Shown here piece after piece: positions 1-8,195 of a stretch of 36,673 bases of DNA (the first letter of the stretch is position 1; each line of letters opens with the position of its first letter). A program made the position numbers and the translations under genes. The notes below the pieces were generated by a model. That model searched no databases and was not told the origin of the DNA. It saw only the letters and a program-made list of their open reading frames with translations. The stretch is from Actinomycetes bacterium (lineage in GTDB: Bacteria > Actinomycetota > CADDZG01 > JAHWKV01), in assembly GCA_029263075.1 (NCBI GenBank), contig JAJCYE010000035.1, positions 1 through 36,673 of the forward strand. The letters run 5' to 3'.

Positions 1-99
1 ACACCGACCGACCCGAAAGGTCTCATCCTGAATCTGCCGAACTTCGCCTTCGTTCGCTCTGCGCCAATTGCCGGCCTAACCCGGAAGTACGGCGCTTGA
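1..99 (+). CDS. 3' end of an unidentified protein (partial, runs off the window start)
   Basis: Frame 1 is open from the first base to a TGA at 97-99 and encodes 32 residues ending in TRKYGA. Roughly two thirds of its codons end in G or C, as in real genes here. The stop overlaps the TTG start of the next gene as TTGA, an arrangement seen repeatedly in this window, which suggests co-translation. Too little remains to name the family. It could also be chance open sequence. Confidence 0.45.
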   Translation, partial: TPTDPKGLILNLPNFAFVRSAPIAGLTRKYGA

Positions 100-761
100 A
101 TCAGTTCGTCGCCCTGATGCGCGAAAAATGGCTGATGACCAGGGATCGCTTCACGACCCTCAACCTCCCGCCCTTCATCAAGCTGGGCCTGCTGGTTGCG
201 GTCGGAGTCCTGCCTTTCGCCGCGTTCGTTGCCCTCCAGAACAATGATTCGACCGAGCCCGACGCCGCGCCCATCCAGCAGGCCATCGACACCAGCCAGA
301 AAGTGCCGCTGCTCTTCCCCTTTGGAGGCAACCCTGAGCCGGTCACCCCGCTGGAGCCCGAGGTCGTCGAAATGAGCCCCAGCCCGGAACCGACTCCCAC
401 CAAATCGCCGGCTGCGCCCCAGTGCTCCAACGGCAAGGACGACGACAAAGACGGCAAGATCGATCTCAAGGATCCGGGATGCTCTTCTCGTACGGACAAG
501 ACCGAGTCACCGGATCCGCAGGCCACCAAGCCGCCGGTTTCACCGGCAGCCCCACCCGCGGCGCCAACACCTCCCCAACCGGCCCCTTCAACGCCTCCGG
601 CGCCAACCCCCACACCGCCGGCTTCACCTCCCGCGCCGTCGCCAACCCCTTCACGGGTGCCCTTGGGCGAATGCGATGACGGAATCGACAACGACAACGA
701 CGGCAAGATCGATCTAGAGGACAAGGCCAGCTGCCACGGTGATCCGACCGAGGACGAGTAG
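96..761 (+). CDS. Proline-rich membrane-anchored protein with two DxDxDG calcium-loop-like motifs
   Basis: Hypothetical 221-residue protein of unknown function. One hydrophobic segment (about residues 29-48) follows a positively charged N-terminus, suggesting a membrane anchor with the rest outside the cell. Two cysteine-flanked acidic motifs, each carrying DGKIDL with Asp at alternating positions, resemble EF-hand or dockerin-like calcium loops. They lie near residues 111-130 and 193-216 and are joined by a Pro/Thr/Ala linker of about 60 residues typical of cell-wall-spanning spacers. The TTG start is chosen because GGAAG lies about nine bases upstream and because it overlaps the previous stop as TTGA. 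An ATG at 117 has no obvious ribosome site. Calcium binding is inferred from the residue pattern only. Confidence 0.72.
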   Translation: MNQFVALMREKWLMTRDRFTTLNLPPFIKLGLLVAVGVLPFAAFVALQNNDSTEPDAAPIQQAIDTSQKVPLLFPFGGNPEPVTPLEPEVVEMSPSPEPTPTKSPAAPQCSNGKDDDKDGKIDLKDPGCSSRTDKTESPDPQATKPPVSPAAPPAAPTPPQPAPSTPPAPTPTPPASPPAPSPTPSRVPLGECDDGIDNDNDGKIDLEDKASCHGDPTEDE

Positions 762-861
762 CGCCGCCGCTCCACCGCCGGACAAACCCGATTGATCCCA
801 AGAAGGCACCCTGCTTCGGCGCGGGGCGTGGAACACCAGGTCCCACGCCGTACATCACCCG

Positions 862-1050
862 CTACTTGGTTTTTGGACCCTTCTTAAAGAGCCTGCGCAA
901 TCGGGCCGACACGTCGGGCGGCAACACCACGCCGTTGTTCTGGGCCTTGATCACCGCTATCAGCTTCACTGCCAGAAAGATCAACAGGCCGAAGACAACC
1001 ACCTGTCCCACCACGAGCAGGACGAACCATCCCATCCCGATACCGTCCAT
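862..1050 (-). CDS. Small single-pass membrane protein
   Basis: A 62-residue protein of unknown function. Residues about 8-35 are almost entirely hydrophobic, and the C-terminal half ends in a basic cluster (RLRRLFKKGPKTK), so the tail is probably cytoplasmic. The ATG is preceded by GAAAGG at good spacing. It lies 12 bases downstream of the lipoprotein gene on the same strand and is probably co-transcribed with it. Size and architecture resemble accessory membrane peptides, but I recognise no family. Confidence 0.6.
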   Translation of the reverse strand: MDGIGMGWFVLLVVGQVVVFGLLIFLAVKLIAVIKAQNNGVVLPPDVSARLRRLFKKGPKTK

Positions 1051-1062
1051 TGGCAGCCTTTC

Positions 1063-1575
1063 TTAACCCTGGAACGAAGCCAAGGCGGCCTCGTACTCGG
1101 CAGCCTGATCCGGGGTGAGGACGTGTCCCAGGCGGAGCAGAACCACTCCGTTGCTGTACTGGTACTCGGGGAACGCGGCAGGGAACTGCTGGCGAGCTAG
1201 ATCCAGCGCCTTCTGGCGATCTTCAAGATCGTCCGTGTTGGAGAACACTTCAACGATCCCGCCAGAGTTCTGGAAGCTGATCACATCCTGGCCTTGCTGC
1301 AGCACCAGCGGGAGCCTGGAGTCCTGGAAGTTTGCTTTGCCCACGTATTGGCCGGGGCGCCCCAGCCGTTTGGTGGGGTCGGTCTCCACGTCGTAGACGT
1401 CCACCCGCCCTATGGCCAGTCCGGAGGCCTGGAAGTGCTCAACAACCGAACCGGCGTTGATCTCACCGGACACTCCGGTGCCAGGGGTGACCAGATCAAA
1501 GTCATCTTCGGGGGACACATTCTGCCGGCATCCAACGCTCAGGCAGACCAGACACAACGAAACCGCCAAACGCAC
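1063..1575 (-). CDS. Putative lipoprotein of unknown function
   Basis: A 170-residue protein starting at GTG, chosen because GGAAGG sits six bases upstream and gives a compact lipoprotein signal peptide ending LSVGC, with Cys16 as the likely lipidated residue. The -3 position is Ser rather than the usual Leu, so the lipobox is imperfect. An upstream in-frame GTG/ATG pair (1608/1605) would add 10-11 residues and has poorer ribosome-site spacing. The mature part has a segment reading QDVISFQNSGGIVEVFSNTD followed by a region rich in Ala, Gln and Tyr; no catalytic motif is visible. It probably forms a two-gene unit with the small membrane protein downstream. Confidence 0.68.
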   Translation of the reverse strand: MRLAVSLCLVCLSVGCRQNVSPEDDFDLVTPGTGVSGEINAGSVVEHFQASGLAIGRVDVYDVETDPTKRLGRPGQYVGKANFQDSRLPLVLQQGQDVISFQNSGGIVEVFSNTDDLEDRQKALDLARQQFPAAFPEYQYSNGVVLLRLGHVLTPDQAAEYEAALASFQG

Positions 1576-1684
1576 AACAAACCTTCCGGAAAACAAAAAG
1601 CACATCACCCCTTAACTTGTTGCGGACAGGCGTGCCCATCTAAAGCTCGCCGGACCTACAGACTAATCGCCATACCAACGAATA

Positions 1685-1727
1685 CAAAAAAACGGGCCCA
1701 AGCAAGCGTGATGCTTGCTTGGGCCCG
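1685..1727 (-). terminator. Strong intrinsic terminator of the low-complexity secreted protein gene
   Basis: A perfect 15-bp stem (1693-1707 with 1713-1727, five-base loop) is followed on the minus strand by a seven-T run (complement of 1686-1692). It lies about 30 bases beyond the stop of the gene ending at 1760, and is one of the two strongest terminators in the window. Confidence 0.92.
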
Positions 1728-1759
1728 ATTAAGAGCTACTGCTTAGGCGCTACCGGCTC

Positions 1760-2440
1760 TTAGCCGAGCAGGCCGCCGCCGAGCAGGCCGCCGGTGCCAC
1801 CGAGCAGGCCGTTAAGCACGTTGTCCAGCGGGATGTCCAGGTCCTCCAGAAGATCGGAGAGAACCGTGCTGCCGCCGAGCACGTCCGACAGAACGTCGCC
1901 GAGGTCAAGCACGTCGTTCAGGTCCAGGCCGATGTCCGGGTTGCTCAAAAGACAACCCAGCAGACCGGCGGTGCAAGCGGTCACGGTACCAGTGGTGGTG
2001 GTGGGCACGGGAACCGGGATCACGGTGAAGACCGGGACCGGGCGAACCACTTGGCCGCCGCCGACAACAGTCGGGGTGCAGACAACGCCTACGCAGTTAA
2101 AGGTGCCTGCGCACTGCAGCGAGCCGCACTTGAGATTGATGTCGCTCTCGTTGGTGGAATTGCCGCTGGCAGAAGCGCCGGCGGGACCCGCAACCGCAGC
2201 CGAGGTGCTGCTGCCGGTGGAGTCCAGATCAAGGCTGTCGACTCCGCCCGCAACCTGAACGCCCGTTGCGCCCACACCGCTGGTGGTGGTGGTGGCGGAC
2301 TGCCCGGGGGTGGAAGCGGTGGAGGTGCTCTGGGTGCTGCTGGTGTTGTTAACCACTACGGTCTGCGCTTGGGCCACAGCAGGCACAAGTAGTGCGAGTG
2401 CTGCCCCAAGGACAAACACAATGGTTTTGATTCTCGTCAT
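1760..2440 (-). CDS. Secreted low-complexity protein with Leu/Gly-rich C-terminus
   Basis: Unrecognised 226-residue exported protein. The ATG at 2440 is preferred over an upstream in-frame start (2527) because a strong GGGGGAGGT ribosome site precedes it and it opens a clean signal peptide ending VAQAQ. The mature protein has four zones: a Ser/Thr/Ala-rich part, a short cysteine zone containing CGSLQC and CVGVVC (about residues 103-120), a Pro/Val/Thr-rich hydrophobic stretch, and a repetitive Asp/Leu segment (DVLDLGDVLSDVL) ending in GLLGG repeats. No enzyme motif or sorting signal is seen. The composition suggests a structural or self-assembling surface protein, which is inference. It has its own terminator and is divergent from another surface-protein gene. 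Confidence 0.75.
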   Translation of the reverse strand: MTRIKTIVFVLGAALALLVPAVAQAQTVVVNNTSSTQSTSTASTPGQSATTTTSGVGATGVQVAGGVDSLDLDSTGSSTSAAVAGPAGASASGNSTNESDINLKCGSLQCAGTFNCVGVVCTPTVVGGGQVVRPVPVFTVIPVPVPTTTTGTVTACTAGLLGCLLSNPDIGLDLNDVLDLGDVLSDVLGGSTVLSDLLEDLDIPLDNVLNGLLGGTGGLLGGGLLG

Positions 2441-2789
2441 TCGTCTACCTCCCCCAAAAAACACAAGTTCAAAAATATATAGCGCAGGCGATCGCGCAAT
2501 CCTTTCACCTTGCAGATACATATTCAATCAGCAATGTAGCGAACCCCTGAAATTCCTGAACTGCGAAGGGGTCCGAACCTTGTTCACGTGGTGCCATTTC
2601 TATCACAACCCGGGCTTCCACTACCGGCGTTCTCCCAACTCCCCCGGTTCGCAGCGCCAAATTAATGGACCGCCTGATGCAGATGCGGTCAGAGACGCTG
2701 TTTTTTGTCCCACCTACGCAGGACCGGCAGCCCGACCCCGCCGCAACAAACACTAAGGGCGCATCCCTCAACACTCTTTGCAGCAACCC

Positions 2790-2819
2790 TTGTCAACAAA
2801 TCACAAAAGTTGCATTAAT
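2790..2819 (+). promoter_or_regulatory. Candidate promoter for the LAxTG surface protein gene
   Basis: TTGTCA (one mismatch to the -35 consensus) and ATTAAT (two mismatches to the -10 consensus) are separated by 18 bases, in an AT-rich patch about 140 bases before the start codon. Position and composition fit a housekeeping promoter with a long leader, but the match is only moderate. Confidence 0.25.
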
Positions 2820-2889
2820 GCCCATAAGAAGCTTGGACTGGCGTAGTGTCTCGGGGGTATGCTTCAATCTGGCTGCTTCGGCCGCCCGA

Positions 2890-2910
2890 CTCGGACCACA
2901 CCGGTCCGAG
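2890..2910 (+). promoter_or_regulatory. Perfect inverted repeat in the leader of the surface protein gene
   Basis: CTCGGACC and GGTCCGAG form an eight-base perfect inverted repeat around a five-base loop, about 50 bases upstream of the ATG. It could be an operator or a leader hairpin. A poly-T patch lies some 30 bases further on, too far for a standard terminator. Confidence 0.3.
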
Positions 2911-2961
2911 CCAAAGACATACTAAAAATCACATTCTTGTTTTTTGACGGAAGGGGAGCAG

Positions 2962-3723
2962 ATGCAGCCCAGTTGGAAGCGAAGCCGCCTAGTTCTAATG
3001 TCGCTGATGGTTTGCGGGGCACTGTTCTTTGCAGCACCCGCCATTGCTCAGACCGTGCTGGGCTCGTTCACGGCCAACGCCAGTGGTGCGTTCTCGGGAG
3101 CAGTCACCATTCCCGCAGGGACGGCTCCCGGCCTTTACGACATCACCGCGACGGGCACCGGCCCGGCGACCAGCCCCTACCCCCCGACCACCGGCGGCCT
3201 ATCGGTTTCCCGCACCGTAGTTGAGGCCGGCGACAGCCTCACCGTCAGCGGCTCCGGATTTGCTCCCAACTCCGCAGTCAGCGTCAGCCTCAGCCCCCGG
3301 GTTTCCGCCCAAGCCATGCAGATCGCACAGGTCAGCCGGACCCTTACGGCCCGAATCCGTGTAGTCGCTCCGGGCACCGGAGTCGGCGGCAACGGCGGCG
3401 GCAGCATCGTCATCAACAACGACAACCGGGTCACCTGCACGAGCAACGCCACTGCAACCGCAGCGGCCTACCACGTGGCTCAGGCGGGCACGAACATCAA
3501 CATCAACAACAACAACTCCGCCAAGTGTGAGTCCACCGCCAGCGCAGTCAAGAACATTGAAACCACGCCGGTTGCCAAGCCAGTCACCAAAGTTTTGGCC
3601 CGCACCGGTGTCGACGCTCTGCCTCTGCTCGCTGCTGCAGTTGCCACCATCCTGCTGGGTTCGGTGCTGCTTAGCGCCGGGCGCCGCCGGGGCGGTTTCG
3701 AAGGCTCCCTCGGTTCGGTCTAG
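2962..3723 (+). CDS. Secreted surface protein with LARTG cell-wall sorting signal
   Basis: A 253-residue exported protein. The ATG is preceded by a purine-rich GGAAGGGGAG; an in-frame TTG 18 bases upstream lacks support. The signal peptide ends about APAIAQ. The mature protein begins with a short Ig-like-type segment (GSFTANASGAFSGAVTIP, then GTAPGLYDITATG), then a GSGFAPNSAVSVSLSP segment, then an Asn/Gly-rich region with two lone cysteines. The C-terminus has LARTG, a hydrophobic stretch of about 20 residues and an Arg-rich tail (GRRRGG), the layout of a sortase substrate. Class E sortases of actinobacteria use LAxTG, so covalent wall attachment is likely. No sortase gene is in this window. 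The ligand or partner is unknown. Confidence 0.8.
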   Translation: MQPSWKRSRLVLMSLMVCGALFFAAPAIAQTVLGSFTANASGAFSGAVTIPAGTAPGLYDITATGTGPATSPYPPTTGGLSVSRTVVEAGDSLTVSGSGFAPNSAVSVSLSPRVSAQAMQIAQVSRTLTARIRVVAPGTGVGGNGGGSIVINNDNRVTCTSNATATAAAYHVAQAGTNININNNNSAKCESTASAVKNIETTPVAKPVTKVLARTGVDALPLLAAAVATILLGSVLLSAGRRRGGFEGSLGSV

Positions 3724-3726
3724 GAC

Positions 3727-3750
3727 CTTGTCGAAGCTATAATCGACAAG
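3727..3750 (+). promoter_or_regulatory. Hairpin with embedded TATAAT between surface protein and BY-kinase genes
   Basis: CTTGTCGA and TCGACAAG form an eight-base stem directly after the upstream stop; no T-run follows, so termination would be weak. A perfect TATAAT at 3738-3743 overlaps the loop and could be the -10 of the downstream kinase gene, but no good -35 is visible. The two readings compete. Confidence 0.3.
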
Positions 3751-3795
3751 CTTCGAACGCGCCCGAAGCTCAAGCTAGGCGAAAGGGCGTAGACC

Positions 3796-5451
3796 TTGGA
3801 ACTTCGTGACTACCTGCGCATCCTGTGGGGGCGACGATGGCTGATCGTCCTCTGCATGGCGGTTGCCGCAGCTTCCGCCCTTGGGTTCTCGGCGCGGATC
3901 ACACCGACTTACGCAGCAACGGCCAAAGTTTTCGTAGGACCCCGGACGGTAGAGAAGAATGATGCCGCCGGGGTCCTACAGGAACTGACCGCCTCCCAGC
4001 AGTACGTCACCTCATACGCGGAGATCTTGAAGAGCCGGCCCTTGGCCGAGATCGTCGTTCAAAAGACCCAGGCCTCCATCACGCCGTCGGACCTGAGCGA
4101 AAAGACCGAGACCAAGATCCTGCCGGACACCCGGCTGATCGCCGTTACCGTGACGGACACCAACCCGGCCAGGGCGCAAACGTACGTAAACCAGATGGTC
4201 AACTCTTTCGTCTCCGACGACGGCAATCTGTTCGGCGGCGGCGGGGCAATCACCGCGTCCGTCTTCGAGCCTGCTCTCAAGCCCGTGGACCCGGTAAGCC
4301 CCAAGCCCCTCCAGAACGGGATCATCGGCGGTCTGCTGGGTTTGATGCTCGGAGTGGGCATTGCCTTCGTCCTGGAGCAACTCGACACCACCCTGCGCAA
4401 CAAGGAGGACGTGGAGAAGATCCTTGCGCCCATCCCGGTCATCGCTACGATCCCGCTATCCCCCTCCGGCAAGGAGCGGTCGCTGTTTATGGAGACCGAC
4501 ACCAACTCGCCGCAGGCCGAAGCCATCAGGATCCTTCGCACCAACATTCAATTCTTCTCCGTTGATCGACCGGTCAACCGCGTCCTGGTCACCAGCCCCT
4601 TCGCCGGCGACGGTAAAACCACGGTTGCCTCCAACCTTGCGGTCGGCATGGCGGCGGTCGGCTCCTCGGTGCTGTTGGTCGAGACCGATCTACGCAAGCC
4701 GGTCCTAAACAAGATGTTCGGCGGCCCCCAGTCTCCCGGCCTGTCCGACGTCCTCTCCGGTCAGTCGACCCTCACCGAGGCAATCCGCCGGACCCGCATA
4801 CCGAATCTGTCGATCATCGTGGCCGGACCTACCCCTCCCAACCCGTCGGAGTTGCTGGGCAGCGAGCGGATGGCCGACTTGATCAACACCGTTTCCAACA
4901 TGGTTGACATAGTCATCCTGGACACACCTCCGGCGCTTCCCGTCACCGACGCCGCTGTTCTGGCCCCCCACACCGACGGGGTGATCCTGGTGGTACGCGC
5001 CGGACAGACCCACGCCCACAAAGCGCTTGATGTCACCAAGAATTTCGAACGCCACGACGTCAGGGTCCTGGGGGTCGCTATAAACGGTGTGGACCGGGAG
5101 ATGGATGGCGGTTACTACTACCGGTACACCTACGGACGGGAAGATGAGAAGGCAGGCACCGGGCGCAAGCGTGGACGAGGCGGGGACTTTGCCGAGTTCG
5201 ACGATCTCGCTCCGCCGCCGGTCCGGCCGGCCCACCGGCCTGCCCCGGCCAAAGAACCCTCCGACCCTGCTGCCCGGCAGCCCTCCAACGGCAGCCCGCC
5301 CCCCGCATTCAGGCCCGATCGAGCAAGGCCCGGCGTCAAGCCTCCATCCCGTAGGACGGGACGAACCGCCGATGAAGCCCGCAACGCTGCATTCAGAGCG
5401 AAGTTGCGGAGCAGCCTGAGCGATGAATCCGACGAGGACGAGCGCCGGTAA
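3796..5451 (+). CDS. Polysaccharide co-polymerase / BY-kinase (Wzz domain fused to tyrosine autokinase)
   Basis: Regulates chain length or export of a surface polysaccharide. The N-terminal Wzz-type domain has membrane segments near residues 14-35 and 174-195 flanking an extracellular loop. The cytoplasmic P-loop kinase follows: Walker A SPFAGDGKTT (about 267), Walker A' VLLVETDLRKP (about 293) and Walker B DIVILDTPP (about 371). A tyrosine cluster (GGYYYRYTY, about 437-445) is the expected autophosphorylation site, but about 105 disordered Pro/Arg-rich residues follow it, whereas the cluster usually ends the protein. The start is TTG with GAAAGGGCG upstream, and the protein begins MELRDYLRILWGRRW, a normal Wzz start. 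Its place beside exported proteins suggests the edge of an exopolysaccharide locus. Confidence 0.93.
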   Translation: MELRDYLRILWGRRWLIVLCMAVAAASALGFSARITPTYAATAKVFVGPRTVEKNDAAGVLQELTASQQYVTSYAEILKSRPLAEIVVQKTQASITPSDLSEKTETKILPDTRLIAVTVTDTNPARAQTYVNQMVNSFVSDDGNLFGGGGAITASVFEPALKPVDPVSPKPLQNGIIGGLLGLMLGVGIAFVLEQLDTTLRNKEDVEKILAPIPVIATIPLSPSGKERSLFMETDTNSPQAEAIRILRTNIQFFSVDRPVNRVLVTSPFAGDGKTTVASNLAVGMAAVGSSVLLVETDLRKPVLNKMFGGPQSPGLSDVLSGQSTLTEAIRRTRIPNLSIIVAGPTPPNPSELLGSERMADLINTVSNMVDIVILDTPPALPVTDAAVLAPHTDGVILVVRAGQTHAHKALDVTKNFERHDVRVLGVAINGVDREMDGGYYYRYTYGREDEKAGTGRKRGRGGDFAEFDDLAPPPVRPAHRPAPAKEPSDPAARQPSNGSPPPAFRPDRARPGVKPPSRRTGRTADEARNAAFRAKLRSSLSDESDEDERR

Positions 5452-5470
5452 AACGGGTCGAGTCGGGAAA

Positions 5471-5485
5471 CCCTACGCGGTAGGG
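5471..5485. terminator. Short hairpin between convergent genes (weak terminator candidate)
   Basis: CCCTAC, a three-base loop and GTAGGG form a six-base perfect stem in the 43-base gap between convergent genes. There is no T-run on either strand, so activity as an intrinsic terminator is doubtful. Confidence 0.25.
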
Positions 5486-5494
5486 CGTCCGGAT

Positions 5495-6034
5495 TTAGGC
5501 TTGAGCTTCCCCGCCGCCGGAATCCGGCTCGGGGGCCTCGGGCTCATCAACATCTACAGATTCATCGACCTCGGCTAGCGTCGTGCCGCCGATCCTTCGC
5601 CTACCCCGCCGCCGGCGCCGGGTGGGGCGTGGTGGTCGGGGAGCCTCGACTGCTTCCGGGTCGGCTGGTGGGGGCGGGGGAGGTTTGACCTCCAGAGCCG
5701 GGTCGGTCGAGTGATCCTCCGCAGCGGGTACCTTGATGATCAACCGGTATTCCTGAGGGGTCGCCGGGACTCCGTACTCACTTTGCAGCGCCCCGATCAA
5801 CTCATCGAGATCGGTCCCGTCCGGGGGCAGGGTTTTAAGCGTCGTGGGCAGCGAGCTCATCGACTCCAGAACTGACTTTTCCCTGGTAGTGCTTCTGCCA
5901 TGCCCACGGCGCCGCCCGGGCGACTGGCTCTCGCGCTCCTCAAGCGGCTCCTGGCTTGGACCGGGTCGGTGTTCACCGGTTCCGGCGCCCCGGCGGCCCC
6001 TCTTTCCCTTGCGGCGGCGGCCTCCCCTGGACAC
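5495..6034 (-). CDS. Arg/Pro-rich low-complexity protein downstream of rsfS
   Basis: A 179-residue protein of unknown function. The N-terminal 45 residues are very basic (GGRRRKGKRGRRG). The only ordered-looking part is about residues 55-105, containing a helical stretch DLDELIGALQSEYGV and RLIIKVPA. A poly-proline run, a second basic block (RRRRRGRRR) and an acidic tail follow. It begins at GTG three bases after the rsfS stop and is probably co-translated with it. The alternation of basic and acidic disorder suggests RNA or ribosome association, which is inference from composition and context. High GC makes long open frames common, but the tight spacing and strand agreement favour a real gene. 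Confidence 0.55.
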   Translation of the reverse strand: MSRGGRRRKGKRGRRGAGTGEHRPGPSQEPLEERESQSPGRRRGHGRSTTREKSVLESMSSLPTTLKTLPPDGTDLDELIGALQSEYGVPATPQEYRLIIKVPAAEDHSTDPALEVKPPPPPPADPEAVEAPRPPRPTRRRRRGRRRIGGTTLAEVDESVDVDEPEAPEPDSGGGEAQA

Positions 6035-6037
6035 CGG

Positions 6038-6406
6038 CTAAGCGGGTTGGCGGTCCTCGAAGGGTACGGTGTCAGCGTCCCTCCAGAGCCGCTCAATGCC
6101 GTAGAACTCGCGCTCTTCGGCGTGGAAGACGTGAACGACGATATCCAAATAATCCAGCAAGACCCAGCGGTTGTCCTTTTCGCCTTCTCGCCTGTAGGTC
6201 TTGACTCCGTTCTCCAACATCTGACGCATTACCTCATCAGCAATTGTTTTTACCTGGCGTTCGGTGTTGCCGGAACAAATAACGAAGTAGTCGGTTATTC
6301 CGATCAGCGGTTCAACTTCCAGGATCACGATCTCGCCGGCCTTTTTCGCCGACGCTGCTTCGGCTGCAATCAGCGCCTTTGAACGGGATTCCTTGTGGAT
6401 TCGCAT
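6038..6406 (-). CDS. rsfS: Ribosomal silencing factor RsfS
   Basis: RsfS binds ribosomal protein L14 on the 50S subunit and blocks joining with 30S when nutrients are short. The 122-residue product shows the family core: DYFVICSGNTERQVKTIADEV, then the REGEKDNRWVLLDYLDIVVHVF segment and the FYGIERLWRDA signature. I chose ATG 6406 (MRIHKESRSKAL) because it matches the usual family N-terminus. An in-frame ATG at 6439 would add 11 residues and has only a weak ribosome site. It follows nadD on the same strand, a very common pairing. It was long annotated as an iojap-like protein. Confidence 0.94.
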   Translation of the reverse strand: MRIHKESRSKALIAAEAASAKKAGEIVILEVEPLIGITDYFVICSGNTERQVKTIADEVMRQMLENGVKTYRREGEKDNRWVLLDYLDIVVHVFHAEEREFYGIERLWRDADTVPFEDRQPA

Positions 6407-6465
6407 CACCCTTTCTTTATTGGTGGATGCTTCTAGCATAACCAGCTTGATCCCCGAGCGGGCGC

Positions 6466-7095
6466 CTATCCCCCACCGAGGGCGGCTGGTTCCGACCGGT
6501 ACAACCGTCGTTCGGTGATGAATTCCCTGACCTCACGAGGCAGCAGGTAACGAATCGTACGGCCCTCCGACACCCGCTTGCGGATATCGGTGGACGAGAT
6601 CGCCAGCGCCGGTATCTCCATCACGCTTACCCGGTCCCGGAACAGCCTTTGATGATCATCGCTCAGCGAGTAGCTCGGCCGGTTGGCCGCGATGAACAGA
6701 GCCTCCTCCAATACCGCCTCCGGGTCCTTCCAGGTCAAGATTTCGGCGACGGCGTCCGTACCGGTGATGAAGAACAGTTCCGCCCGTTCACCGTAAAACG
6801 CCCTGAACGCCCTCAGAGTGTCCACGGTGTAGGTGGGTCCCCCGCGGTCGATGTCGATCCGGGACACCGAAAAGTGGTGGTTAGAGGCAGTGGCAAGCAC
6901 CGTTATCAGATAGCGGTCCTCCGCCTCCGAGACCGCCGCCTTCTGCCAGGGCTGACCGGTGGGGACAAAAACCACCTCGTCCAGACCGAATTGCAGGCGC
7001 GCCTCCTCGGCACAAACCAGGTGGCCGTTGTGTATGGGGTCGAAAGTTCCGCCCATAATTCCAATTCGGCGGGGATCTTGCTGCTCTGGGATCAA
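6466..7095 (-). CDS. nadD: Nicotinate-nucleotide adenylyltransferase
   Basis: Transfers AMP from ATP to nicotinate mononucleotide to make deamido-NAD, the penultimate step of NAD synthesis. The 209-residue product has the nucleotidyltransferase signature GGTFDPIHNGH at residues 15-25 and the second motif ISSTDIRKR at about 166-174; TGTDAVAEILTW in between is also typical. The start is a TTG that overlaps the stop of the upstream PH-domain gene as TTGA, indicating translational coupling. It leads into rsfS, so NAD synthesis and ribosome silencing sit in one transcript, as in many bacteria. Confidence 0.95.
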   Translation of the reverse strand: MIPEQQDPRRIGIMGGTFDPIHNGHLVCAEEARLQFGLDEVVFVPTGQPWQKAAVSEAEDRYLITVLATASNHHFSVSRIDIDRGGPTYTVDTLRAFRAFYGERAELFFITGTDAVAEILTWKDPEAVLEEALFIAANRPSYSLSDDHQRLFRDRVSVMEIPALAISSTDIRKRVSEGRTIRYLLPREVREFITERRLYRSEPAALGGG

Positions 7096-7664
7096 AGCTT
7101 CACCTGAGGGAGCGGTCCGGTGGTCTCCTCCCCCGGGTCCAAGTGCCGGGGTTCGGAGTCCGGCTCACCCAACAGCAACGAGGTGACCAGGCGGTAGACC
7201 TCGCCGGCCCTGGGGAGGCGGGAAAGGGTGGCAAGACTCAACTGTTCGCCGGCGGCGTCCAGTTTGAGGTCGCCGTAGCCCAAAATGCGGCCGAGGACCG
7301 ACCGGTTGAAGCTGGTTTCGGTCACACGGGCAAGACGCACCGAACTGACGTTTACCGAAAGAAGACCCTGGAGCAGCAACACGCGCTCGTCGGTCACCAC
7401 GTAGGACGACTTCCACCAGATCAGACCCGGCACTATCGTGTACGCCGTAACCGCCAGCGACAACCAAAGCACCGCCCGATCAACAAAAACGATCGGGTTA
7501 CTCTCGGTGATAACCATAGAAATCGACCCCAGAACCAAAAGAGTCGCCAGCCATATGGCTAGCGGCTTCACCAAAACCACCGGGTGCCTGCGGGTGGTCA
7601 GCAGTACCTGTTCCCCGGGCGCCAAGTACTTGCTGGCGCCGCGTAGGCGGGGTTTCCTGAACAA
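7092..7664 (-). CDS. PH-domain membrane protein (bacterial PH / YdbS-like)
   Basis: A 190-residue membrane protein. Two hydrophobic segments (about residues 29-52 and 60-85) precede a bacterial PH-like domain beginning WWKSSYVVTDERVLLLQGLLS and continuing with VSSVRLARVTETSFNRSVLGRILGYGDLKLD, the usual signature. The N-terminal LAPGEQVLLTTRRHP is also typical. The function of these proteins is largely unknown; a membrane-associated scaffold role is inferred. The start is TTG with GGAGAG at good spacing. It heads the operon leading to nadD and rsfS and is divergent from the DUF192 lipoprotein gene. Confidence 0.88.
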   Translation of the reverse strand: MFRKPRLRGASKYLAPGEQVLLTTRRHPVVLVKPLAIWLATLLVLGSISMVITESNPIVFVDRAVLWLSLAVTAYTIVPGLIWWKSSYVVTDERVLLLQGLLSVNVSSVRLARVTETSFNRSVLGRILGYGDLKLDAAGEQLSLATLSRLPRAGEVYRLVTSLLLGEPDSEPRHLDPGEETTGPLPQVKL

Positions 7665-7724
7665 TAGGGCTCTCCGGTTTCCGGGGACACGAACACGACC
7701 CCCTTAGGATAAAGAATCGGACCG

Positions 7725-8195
7725 ATGAAGCCCCGACACCGCCACCGCCCGTCATGGATGTTCCTGCTGGTCCTGCTGGCGGCCTGCGGGGGTTCCGGGC
7801 AGGAACCGGGCGTCACGGAGGGCCTCCCCCGTGGGACCCTGACCATTGAGGCGGACCAAAAGCTGGTGCTAAACGTAGATCTGGCGCTGACAGTCGAAGC
7901 GCAAGCCCGCGGACTGATGGGAGTCAAAGATCTCCCGGACGACTACGGAATGGTATTCGCCTGGGCTGAGCCGGGGATCCACGCCTTCTATATGAAGAAC
8001 ACCCTCATCCCACTGGACATCGCCTGGTGGAACGAGGACCTGGAGATCATCGATATCCAAACGATGCAACCGTGCACCGCCGACCCGTGCCGCACCTACG
8101 TGCCGGCCGCTCGGCACACGGCGGCGGTGGAAGTCGCGGCGGGCCGACTGGAATCGGCCGGCGTCAAGGTCGGCGATCGGGTAAGGCTGGACTAG
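7725..8195 (+). CDS. DUF192 family lipoprotein
   Basis: A 156-residue predicted lipoprotein. The signal peptide ends LLAAC with Cys21 as the lipidation site. The rest is a complete DUF192 domain: RGLMG at 62-66, then GMVFAW, FYMKNT at 88-93, PLDIAWWNED, and a paired-cysteine segment (Cys117, Cys122) before RTYVPA. The biochemical role of DUF192 is not established. It stands alone on the plus strand, divergent from the PH-nadD operon and convergent with zwf. The ribosome site is weak; a TAGGAT about 14 bases before the ATG could serve as a -10, giving a very short leader. Confidence 0.9.
   Translation: MKPRHRHRPSWMFLLVLLAACGGSGQEPGVTEGLPRGTLTIEADQKLVLNVDLALTVEAQARGLMGVKDLPDDYGMVFAWAEPGIHAFYMKNTLIPLDIAWWNEDLEIIDIQTMQPCTADPCRTYVPAARHTAAVEVAAGRLESAGVKVGDRVRLD

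What the first reader, a model, noticed from the sequence alone, without database searches (positions are those of the whole stretch)
862..5451. Accessory envelope cluster: four exported or anchored unknowns beside a polysaccharide BY-kinase
A lipoprotein, a small membrane protein, a low-complexity secreted protein and an LAxTG wall-anchored protein lie next to a Wzz/tyrosine kinase gene. This could be a surface-layer or capsule locus in which the unknowns coat or anchor the polymer. It is the best candidate here for an undescribed system.
Basis: inference. Interest (0 to 1): 0.5.

Follow-up and report, generated by a model that had tools for sequence, protein, structure and literature searches.

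The report
Capsule kinase with wall-anchored partner
A gene for a capsule-type chain-length kinase is paired with a gene for a protein that looks tethered to the cell wall; the pair recurs in relatives and probably serves sugar-polymer genes elsewhere, whereas the other three mystery genes beside it are separate neighbours.

Summary
The genes are real and their order is kept in 4 of 4 genus genomes. They are not one capsule or surface-layer cluster. In a sister genus (G005) the small membrane protein, lipoprotein and low-complexity secreted protein stay beside rsfS without the kinase, while the sortase-signal protein and the kinase sit together on another contig, behind a DUF4012 gene. In the best-assembled relative I recognised no glycosyltransferase, flippase or sortase within about 15-20 kb. 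The lipoprotein family turns up elsewhere with unrelated neighbours. So two modules share a place: an LARTG protein + Wzz/BY-kinase pair of polysaccharide type, and a lineage-specific rsfS-linked set.

Beyond the finding: 7 of 16 other BY-kinase regions of the class hold a gene with an LPFTG/LAFTG sorting tail, in 5 of the 7 between a DUF4012 gene and the kinase, against 1 of 20 control regions (p 0.008; filters were tuned after a first look, so indicative only). In several the mature product would be only about 30-60 residues. My paper searches found no account of this DUF4012 / sortase-substrate / BY-kinase triad. The window holds a displaced version. Mechanism is inferred; function was not tested.

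The parts
2944..3723 (+). Wall-anchored protein gene (likely start ATG 2962): signal peptide, beta-sandwich Ig-like domain, Asn-rich two-cysteine module, LARTG-membrane helix-RRR tail
3796..5451 (+). Wzz / BY-kinase (polysaccharide co-polymerase type) with Walker A, A', B and YYYRYTY tail, then a Pro-rich extension with a conserved C-terminus
3724..3795 (+). 72-bp gap between the two; a TATAAT is kept in the four genus sequences, a hairpin in the window is not clearly kept
1760..2440 (-). Secreted Ser/Thr/Asn-rich low-complexity protein; not linked to the kinase in G005
1693..1727 (-). Terminator-like hairpin with T7 after the secreted-protein gene
1063..1608 (-). Predicted lipoprotein of a scattered actinobacterial family; not linked to the kinase in G005
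862..1050 (-). Small one-helix membrane protein following the lipoprotein gene
96..761 (+). Membrane-anchored Pro-rich protein with acidic double-disulfide repeats (NF033662, 43.8 bits against a cut-off of 41), first of a tandem family; the frame is open to base 3
5495..6439 (-). rsfS and the gene that follows it: the housekeeping anchor of the locus, also side by side in G004, G005, G006 and G007

Best explanation
Bases 2944-5451 hold a two-gene pair: a protein that sortase should attach to the cell wall (LARTG) and a Wzz/BY-kinase. The kinase's membrane part sets the chain length of a Wzx/Wzy-type polymer and its cytoplasmic part cycles by tyrosine phosphorylation; the wall-anchored protein sits where the new polymer emerges and holds or organises it. 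The polymer genes are elsewhere in the genome (for example contig C107 with a glycosyltransferase and a Glycos_transf_4-DUF4012 fusion), so the pair acts in trans. It is a displaced piece of a DUF4012 / sortase-substrate / BY-kinase triad found in related genomes. The lipoprotein, small membrane protein and secreted protein are separate envelope genes that share only the rsfS neighbourhood. Shown by sequence: domains, sorting signal, pairing, the G005 arrangement, the recurrence of the triad in the class. Inferred: anchoring, kinase activity, action in trans, and holding of the polymer.
For: Kinase domains and motifs. LARTG protein and kinase are neighbours in 5 of 5 genomes with a full-length member of either, at two different loci. 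In G005: a 697-aa frame with DUF4012, cut by the contig end, then LVRTG protein, then kinase; its counterpart in G000 (59% identical over the DUF4012 region) carries Glycos_transf_4 + DUF4012 on C107, with a glycosyltransferase on the same contig, and no kinase was found there. In G000, G001 and G002 this is the only match to the whole kinase profile, the rest being P-loop matches of about 120-140 positions; G003 has a second kinase in a locus with DUF4012 and Bac_transf. Sorting-tail genes in 7 of 16 other BY-kinase regions of the class (7 of 11 with DUF4012 in the region, 0 of 5 without), and 1 of 20 control regions. On the kinase tree this label needs 4 changes, at least 3 forced by well-supported branches, so it is not one close clade. 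Four sortase genes exist in the genome; LAXTG is the class E signal (PMC5148588, passages read).
Against: In the window's genus no glycosyltransferase, flippase or polymerase was recognised near the pair. 9 of 16 other BY-kinase regions lack a sorting-tail gene, including both in the window's own family (G003 C6, G005 C304), which do have DUF4012; some regions are short. The sorting-tail proteins of different families are not shown to be homologous: beyond the family, A6 found only part-length matches. DUF4012 function is unknown, and no solved relative was found. PF02397 (Bac_transf) was not found in G000. The filter behind the count was changed after a first scan that gave 5 frames in each set. 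No expression or functional data.
Confidence: 0.55

Rival explanations
1. The pair is a chance or purely transcriptional neighbourhood: the kinase regulates a polymer, and the LARTG protein is an unrelated adhesin or Ig-like surface protein.
For: The beta-sandwich and the anchor region have generic part-length matches across the phylum (34 of 396 genomes match in all, 5 of them the window's family). 9 of 16 other BY-kinase regions have no such neighbour. A TATAAT kept in the gap could give the kinase its own promoter.
Against: The pair stays together at two unrelated loci, and sorting-tail genes recur beside BY-kinase/DUF4012 in other families of the class.
Confidence: 0.25
2. One reading: one capsule or surface-layer locus in which all four unknowns coat or anchor the polymer.
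For: Gene order from the proline-rich protein to the kinase is kept in 4 of 4 genus genomes. A FkbM-type methyltransferase lies about 12 kb from the kinase in G003.
Against: Split in G005; lipoprotein family scattered; no glycosyltransferase, flippase or sortase recognised nearby in G003.
Confidence: 0.1
3. A chaplin-like coat: the secreted low-complexity protein is a soluble subunit that assembles on the wall-anchored LARTG protein, as short and long chaplins do.
For: Divergent neighbours in the genus; in G005 the two share a low-complexity Asn/Ser/Ala/Gly stretch that scores above all 300 shuffles.
Against: In the 4 genus genomes the similarity is no better than shuffles (98, 54, 97 and 281 of 300 reach it for G000, G002, G001, G003); profile comparison aligned only signal peptides; no chaplin family listed at E up to 1; unlinked in G005.
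Confidence: 0.07

Closest known systems
CapAB / Wzc-type BY-kinases (Gram-positive CapA-CapB, Gram-negative Wzc)
   Same: Wzz membrane part, P-loop kinase, tyrosine cluster; among 15 PDB sequences matched are CapA1/CapB1 and Wzc
   Different: One fused chain in an actinobacterial cell; first acid of Walker A' is E in this clade; a long Pro-rich extension after the tyrosines; no polymer genes recognised nearby; an anchored-protein partner gene
DUF4012-containing EPS loci, e.g. Bifidobacterium longum 105-A eps (PMC5412050, passages read)
   Same: DUF4012 gene beside a wzz gene in a polysaccharide locus
   Different: The passages read name no sortase substrate between them; in the window's genus the pair lies away from DUF4012
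SrtE (LAXTG) substrates: long chaplins, CwpA/CwpB of Actinoplanes (PMC13251363 and PMC5148588, passages read)
   Same: Sortase tail (LAxTG for the chaplins), actinobacterial, disordered stretches plus small beta domains
   Different: No chaplin domain; coded beside a capsule-type kinase
Scattered actinobacterial lipoprotein family of window 1063-1608
   Same: Matches in 12 of 396 phylum genomes: 5 of the window's family and 7 others, three of them with 8-10 Mb genomes (Streptomyces-like is my guess)
   Different: Here in a conserved rsfS-linked set

Membership tests
BY-kinase / Wzz polysaccharide co-polymerase | Wzz N-terminal domain and AAA_31-type kinase domain | tested here: met
   Pfam Wzz 6.8e-14, AAA_31 8e-11, both over cut-off; TIGR01007 184.1 bits against 108.05
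BY-kinase / Wzz polysaccharide co-polymerase | Walker A, A', B and C-terminal tyrosine cluster | tested here: met
   SPFAGDGKTT, LLVETDLR (E for the first D), IVILDTPP, YYYRYTY; motif definitions recalled
BY-kinase / Wzz polysaccharide co-polymerase | Autophosphorylation and control of polymer length | not testable with these tools
   needs protein or mutants
Capsule/EPS gene cluster | Glycosyltransferases, flippase or polymerase in the neighbourhood | tested here: not met
   none recognised among the window's frames (10 of the later ones scanned with Pfam, the rest by eye) or about 15-20 kb either side in G003; a FkbM methyltransferase is the nearest thing. The G005 copy of the pair does follow a DUF4012 gene
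Sortase (class E) substrate | Signal peptide plus LAxTG, hydrophobic helix, basic tail | tested here: met
   sequence and alignment; model has helices 4-23 and 220-240
Sortase (class E) substrate | A class E sortase in the same genome | tested here: inconclusive
   4 sortase genes found, classes not assigned; the one on C11 lies by a PASTA-kinase-like and a pabA-like gene (by eye), which I recall as typical of class E
Sortase (class E) substrate | Covalent attachment to the wall | not testable with these tools
   experiment needed
Chaplins | Chaplin domain | tested here: not met
   no chaplin family listed at E up to 1 for either protein
Surface-layer locus | SLH or other surface-layer domain | tested here: not met
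   no such family listed at E up to 1 for the five small proteins

The most novel reading that the evidence does not exclude
Many uncultured Actinomycetota hold their capsule by a protein tether: a sortase-anchored protein, in several lineages only 30-60 residues long when mature, is coded between DUF4012 and the Wzz/BY-kinase and is the wall-bound acceptor or guide on which DUF4012 and the kinase place the growing polymer. This would be a sortase-based route of capsule attachment beside direct ligation to peptidoglycan.
Probability: 0.12. Interest if true: 0.75.

Novelty: new variant of a known kind. Interest (0 to 1): 0.42.

Why it matters
How Gram-positive-type cells keep exopolysaccharide on the wall is known mainly for direct ligation to peptidoglycan (recalled). 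A recurring gene triad of DUF4012, a tiny sortase substrate and a BY-kinase points to a protein partner that could be tested by deletion in any culturable carrier, and gives a functional hint for DUF4012. The split of the locus also shows how a conserved gene order inside one genus can look like a system when it is two.

Tried and rejected
Surface-layer or single capsule locus: rejected for three of the unknowns. Chaplin-like pairing: only 1 of 5 genome pairs above shuffles, profile comparison aligned signal peptides only. Hairpin between the two genes: folds better than shuffles (z -2.49) but the stem is not clearly kept in relatives. Rfam: no family in window 1-8000 at gathering scores. Lipoprotein model from three sequences had pLDDT 45.9 and was not searched. 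LARTG model: only residues about 29-114 and, weaker, 124-141 are above pLDDT 50; Foldseek found nothing at E <= 0.001 and VIA-align nothing at Z >= 5; no named fold claimed. DUF4012 against solved structures: 0 matches up to E 10, so the relation to LytR-CpsA-Psr ligases that I suspected stays unsupported. Joining contig C64 to the window's left end: gene order fits relatives but there is no exact overlap of 15 bases or more, so it is only probable. A paper search for 'acidic double-disulfide' found nothing.

Rows left out or chosen by me: one search counts 14 regions of other families (7 with a sorting tail) plus G003 C6 and G005 C304 (0 of 2). Three more fetched regions were left out because the kinase match was weak or absent: L171 (G014), L172, L173; L171 and L173 also hold an LPFTG frame in the looser scan, L172 none. 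Weaker kinase matches (short P-loop ones) were not fetched. Between I changed the filter (dropped the signal-peptide test, required T in the motif, allowed at most three membrane stretches to exclude FtsW/RodA-like proteins): one search gave 5 frames in 135 kb of BY-kinase regions and 5 in 248 kb of controls, one search gave 7 and 1. Control regions were picked by me from genomes of the same class at arbitrary places, mostly genomes that also gave a kinase region; one short control (L177) is on the same contig as a kinase region. p values: 7 of 14 against 1 of 20, 0.0039, and by bases 0.0037; 7 of 16 against 1 of 20, 0.0080; all indicative only. G015's frame is partly masked and only its readable part was used; in G012 C42 the listed frame overlaps the kinase start, and the likely start is a later one. 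Gene boundaries in fetched regions are mechanical open frames.
Full report
What is in the window. The window is a whole contig, C35, of a 2.4-Mb, 142-contig, 94%-complete genome. Left to right: a proline-rich membrane protein with acidic double-disulfide repeats (about 96-761, +), a one-helix small membrane protein (862-1050, -), a predicted lipoprotein (1063-1608, -), a secreted low-complexity protein (1760-2440, -), an LARTG protein (2944-3723, +), a Wzz/BY-kinase (3796-5451, +), then rsfS, nadD, a PH-domain protein, a DUF192 protein, zwf, proA, proB and obg (nadD, proA, proB and obg named by eye).

Conservation. Searching the lipoprotein in 61 genomes gave 6 (4 of 4 of the genus, G005 of the family, and a weak one in G007). 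In the three other genus genomes the genes from the proline-rich protein to obg are found in the same order.

The order breaks in the sister genus. In G005 the small membrane protein, lipoprotein and secreted protein are still beside rsfS, but the secreted protein and the rsfS-side gene are neighbours there, with no LARTG protein or kinase between. Those two are on another contig, C7 (5.3 kb), in the order: a 697-aa open frame with DUF4012 that is cut by the contig end, LVRTG protein (2285-2977), kinase (3060-4637). In G004 (same family), G006 and G007 (same order) none of the five genes was found at rsfS (tblastn, E up to 0.01). A caveat: G005 is 64% complete and in 350 contigs.

What lies around. 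In G003 (7 contigs) about 15 kb on the rsfS side holds housekeeping genes, and 20 kb on the other side a second proline-rich paralogue, a CopC-domain membrane protein, two methyltransferases (one of FkbM type), a LuxR-type regulator, an exchanger, malate synthase, a cation efflux protein and others; seven of those frames were scanned with Pfam, the rest judged by eye. No glycosyltransferase, flippase, polymerase or sortase was recognised. In the window's own genome contig C64 (3.7 kb) carries two more proline-rich proteins and the CopC-type protein in the matching orientation, so it is the probable continuation to the left, without an exact overlap. The genome's four sortases are on C11, C132, C85 and C31, none on C35.

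Polymer genes elsewhere. The G000 frame on C107 has Glycos_transf_4 and DUF4012 domains; the same contig has a glycosyltransferase. In G003 the corresponding frame lies near a Bac_transf and a Polysacc_synt_3 gene. No BY-kinase was listed at these places. PF02397 was not found in G000. With profile A3, G000, G001 and G002 show one match to the whole kinase each, the rest being P-loop matches of about 120-140 positions; G003 has a second kinase, in a locus with DUF4012, Bac_transf and glycosyltransferase-like genes. The pair therefore most likely works in trans; this is inference.

The unknowns one by one. LARTG protein: matched in 5 of 24 class genomes; in 396 phylum genomes 34 have a match, but outside the family only to parts of the Ig-like or anchor region. 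Its Asn-rich two-cysteine module also occurs, next to an LARTG tail, in larger surface proteins of G001 and G002, the latter with DUF11/DUF7507 repeats, so it is a shared stalk module. The model is confident only for a beta-sandwich. Lipoprotein: 12 of 396 phylum genomes, 7 outside the family, next to unrelated genes. Secreted protein: Ser/Thr/Asn-rich, own terminator; similar to the LARTG protein beyond shuffles only in G005.

The wider pattern. Looking at the other BY-kinase genes of the class showed small secreted proteins with LPFTG or LAFTG tails next to some. I fetched larger regions and controls. Final count: sorting-tail gene in 7 of 16 regions outside the window's kinase clade (G020, G012 C42, G022 C161, G021, G010, G013, G015), DUF4012 in 11 of 16, all 7 within those 11; controls 1 of 20. 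In G012 C42, G022 C161, G021, G010 and G015 the sorting-tail gene lies between DUF4012 and the kinase; in G020 it is on the kinase's other side; in G013 it is beside DUF4012, 5.4 kb from the kinase. Mature products look about 30-60 residues long in G012, G010, G021, G022 and G013 (read; cleavage sites inferred). The kinase tree puts the window's clade (5 rows, 100/100) apart from the others, next to the EPS-type kinases of G003 C6, G005 C304 and G006 (99/97); the label needs 4 changes, at least 3 of them forced. The filter was adjusted after a first scan, as told under Tried and rejected.

Literature. LAXTG is the class E sortase signal and long chaplins and CwpA/CwpB are SrtE substrates (PMC5148588, PMC13251363; passages read). 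DUF4012 stands beside wzz in the B. longum 105-A eps locus (PMC5412050, passages read); a second DUF4012 paper names it only as a hub gene in biofilm transcriptomes (PMC7917626, one passage read), the third was seen in the listing only. Searches for DUF4012 (3 papers), for bacterial tyrosine kinase + Wzz + sortase + Actinobacteria (0), for LPXTG + chain length determinant + exopolysaccharide + actinobacteria (1, on a Lactobacillus, listing only), for LytR-CpsA-Psr + DUF4012 (0), for LPFTG (1, listing only) and for sortase substrate + polysaccharide co-polymerase (0) gave no account of the triad; a looser search listed 10 of 65 papers, of which I saw only the listing. The library is open-licence PubMed Central only.

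Verdict. Two modules share a chromosomal place. The LARTG/BY-kinase pair is of polysaccharide type and a displaced member of an arrangement that recurs in the class and that I did not find described; the other three unknowns look like ordinary lineage-specific envelope genes, with no evidence of a tie to it beyond the shared place in one genus.

Noticed in passing
window 96-761; G000 contig C64 (L149) 1-411 and 804-1586: Tandem family of membrane-anchored Pro-rich proteins with acidic double-disulfide repeats, 2-3 copies seen per genus genome at this place.
   Followed up: partly
L149 1636-3729 (C64), L012 2587-4974 (G003): CopC-domain membrane protein with a C-terminal Cys/His-rich region (CHQITHDLGR ... 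YNCVHGVGHG) that no Pfam model named in the G003 copy.
   Followed up: no
L103 7439-8701 (G000 C31): A sortase-domain protein whose C-terminus resembles the acidic double-disulfide repeat of the window's proline-rich protein.
   Followed up: no
L081 7974-10703 (G002), L082 1-1188 (G001): Large surface protein (DUF11/DUF7507 repeats in G002) with LARTG tail and the same Asn-rich two-cysteine module as the window's LARTG protein, beside an rpoC-like gene in G002.
   Followed up: partly
L101 6470-8587 and L102 5273-7822 (G000 C132, C85): Two sortase / LPRTG-protein neighbour pairs in the window's genome.
   Followed up: no
window 3738-3743: TATAAT kept in the 72-bp gap before the kinase in the genus; the promoter scan found no full sigma-70-like site.
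   Followed up: no
L161, L163, L166, L167, L168, L169: Very short predicted sortase substrates (mature about 30-60 residues where fully readable) beside DUF4012 and BY-kinase genes.
   Followed up: partly
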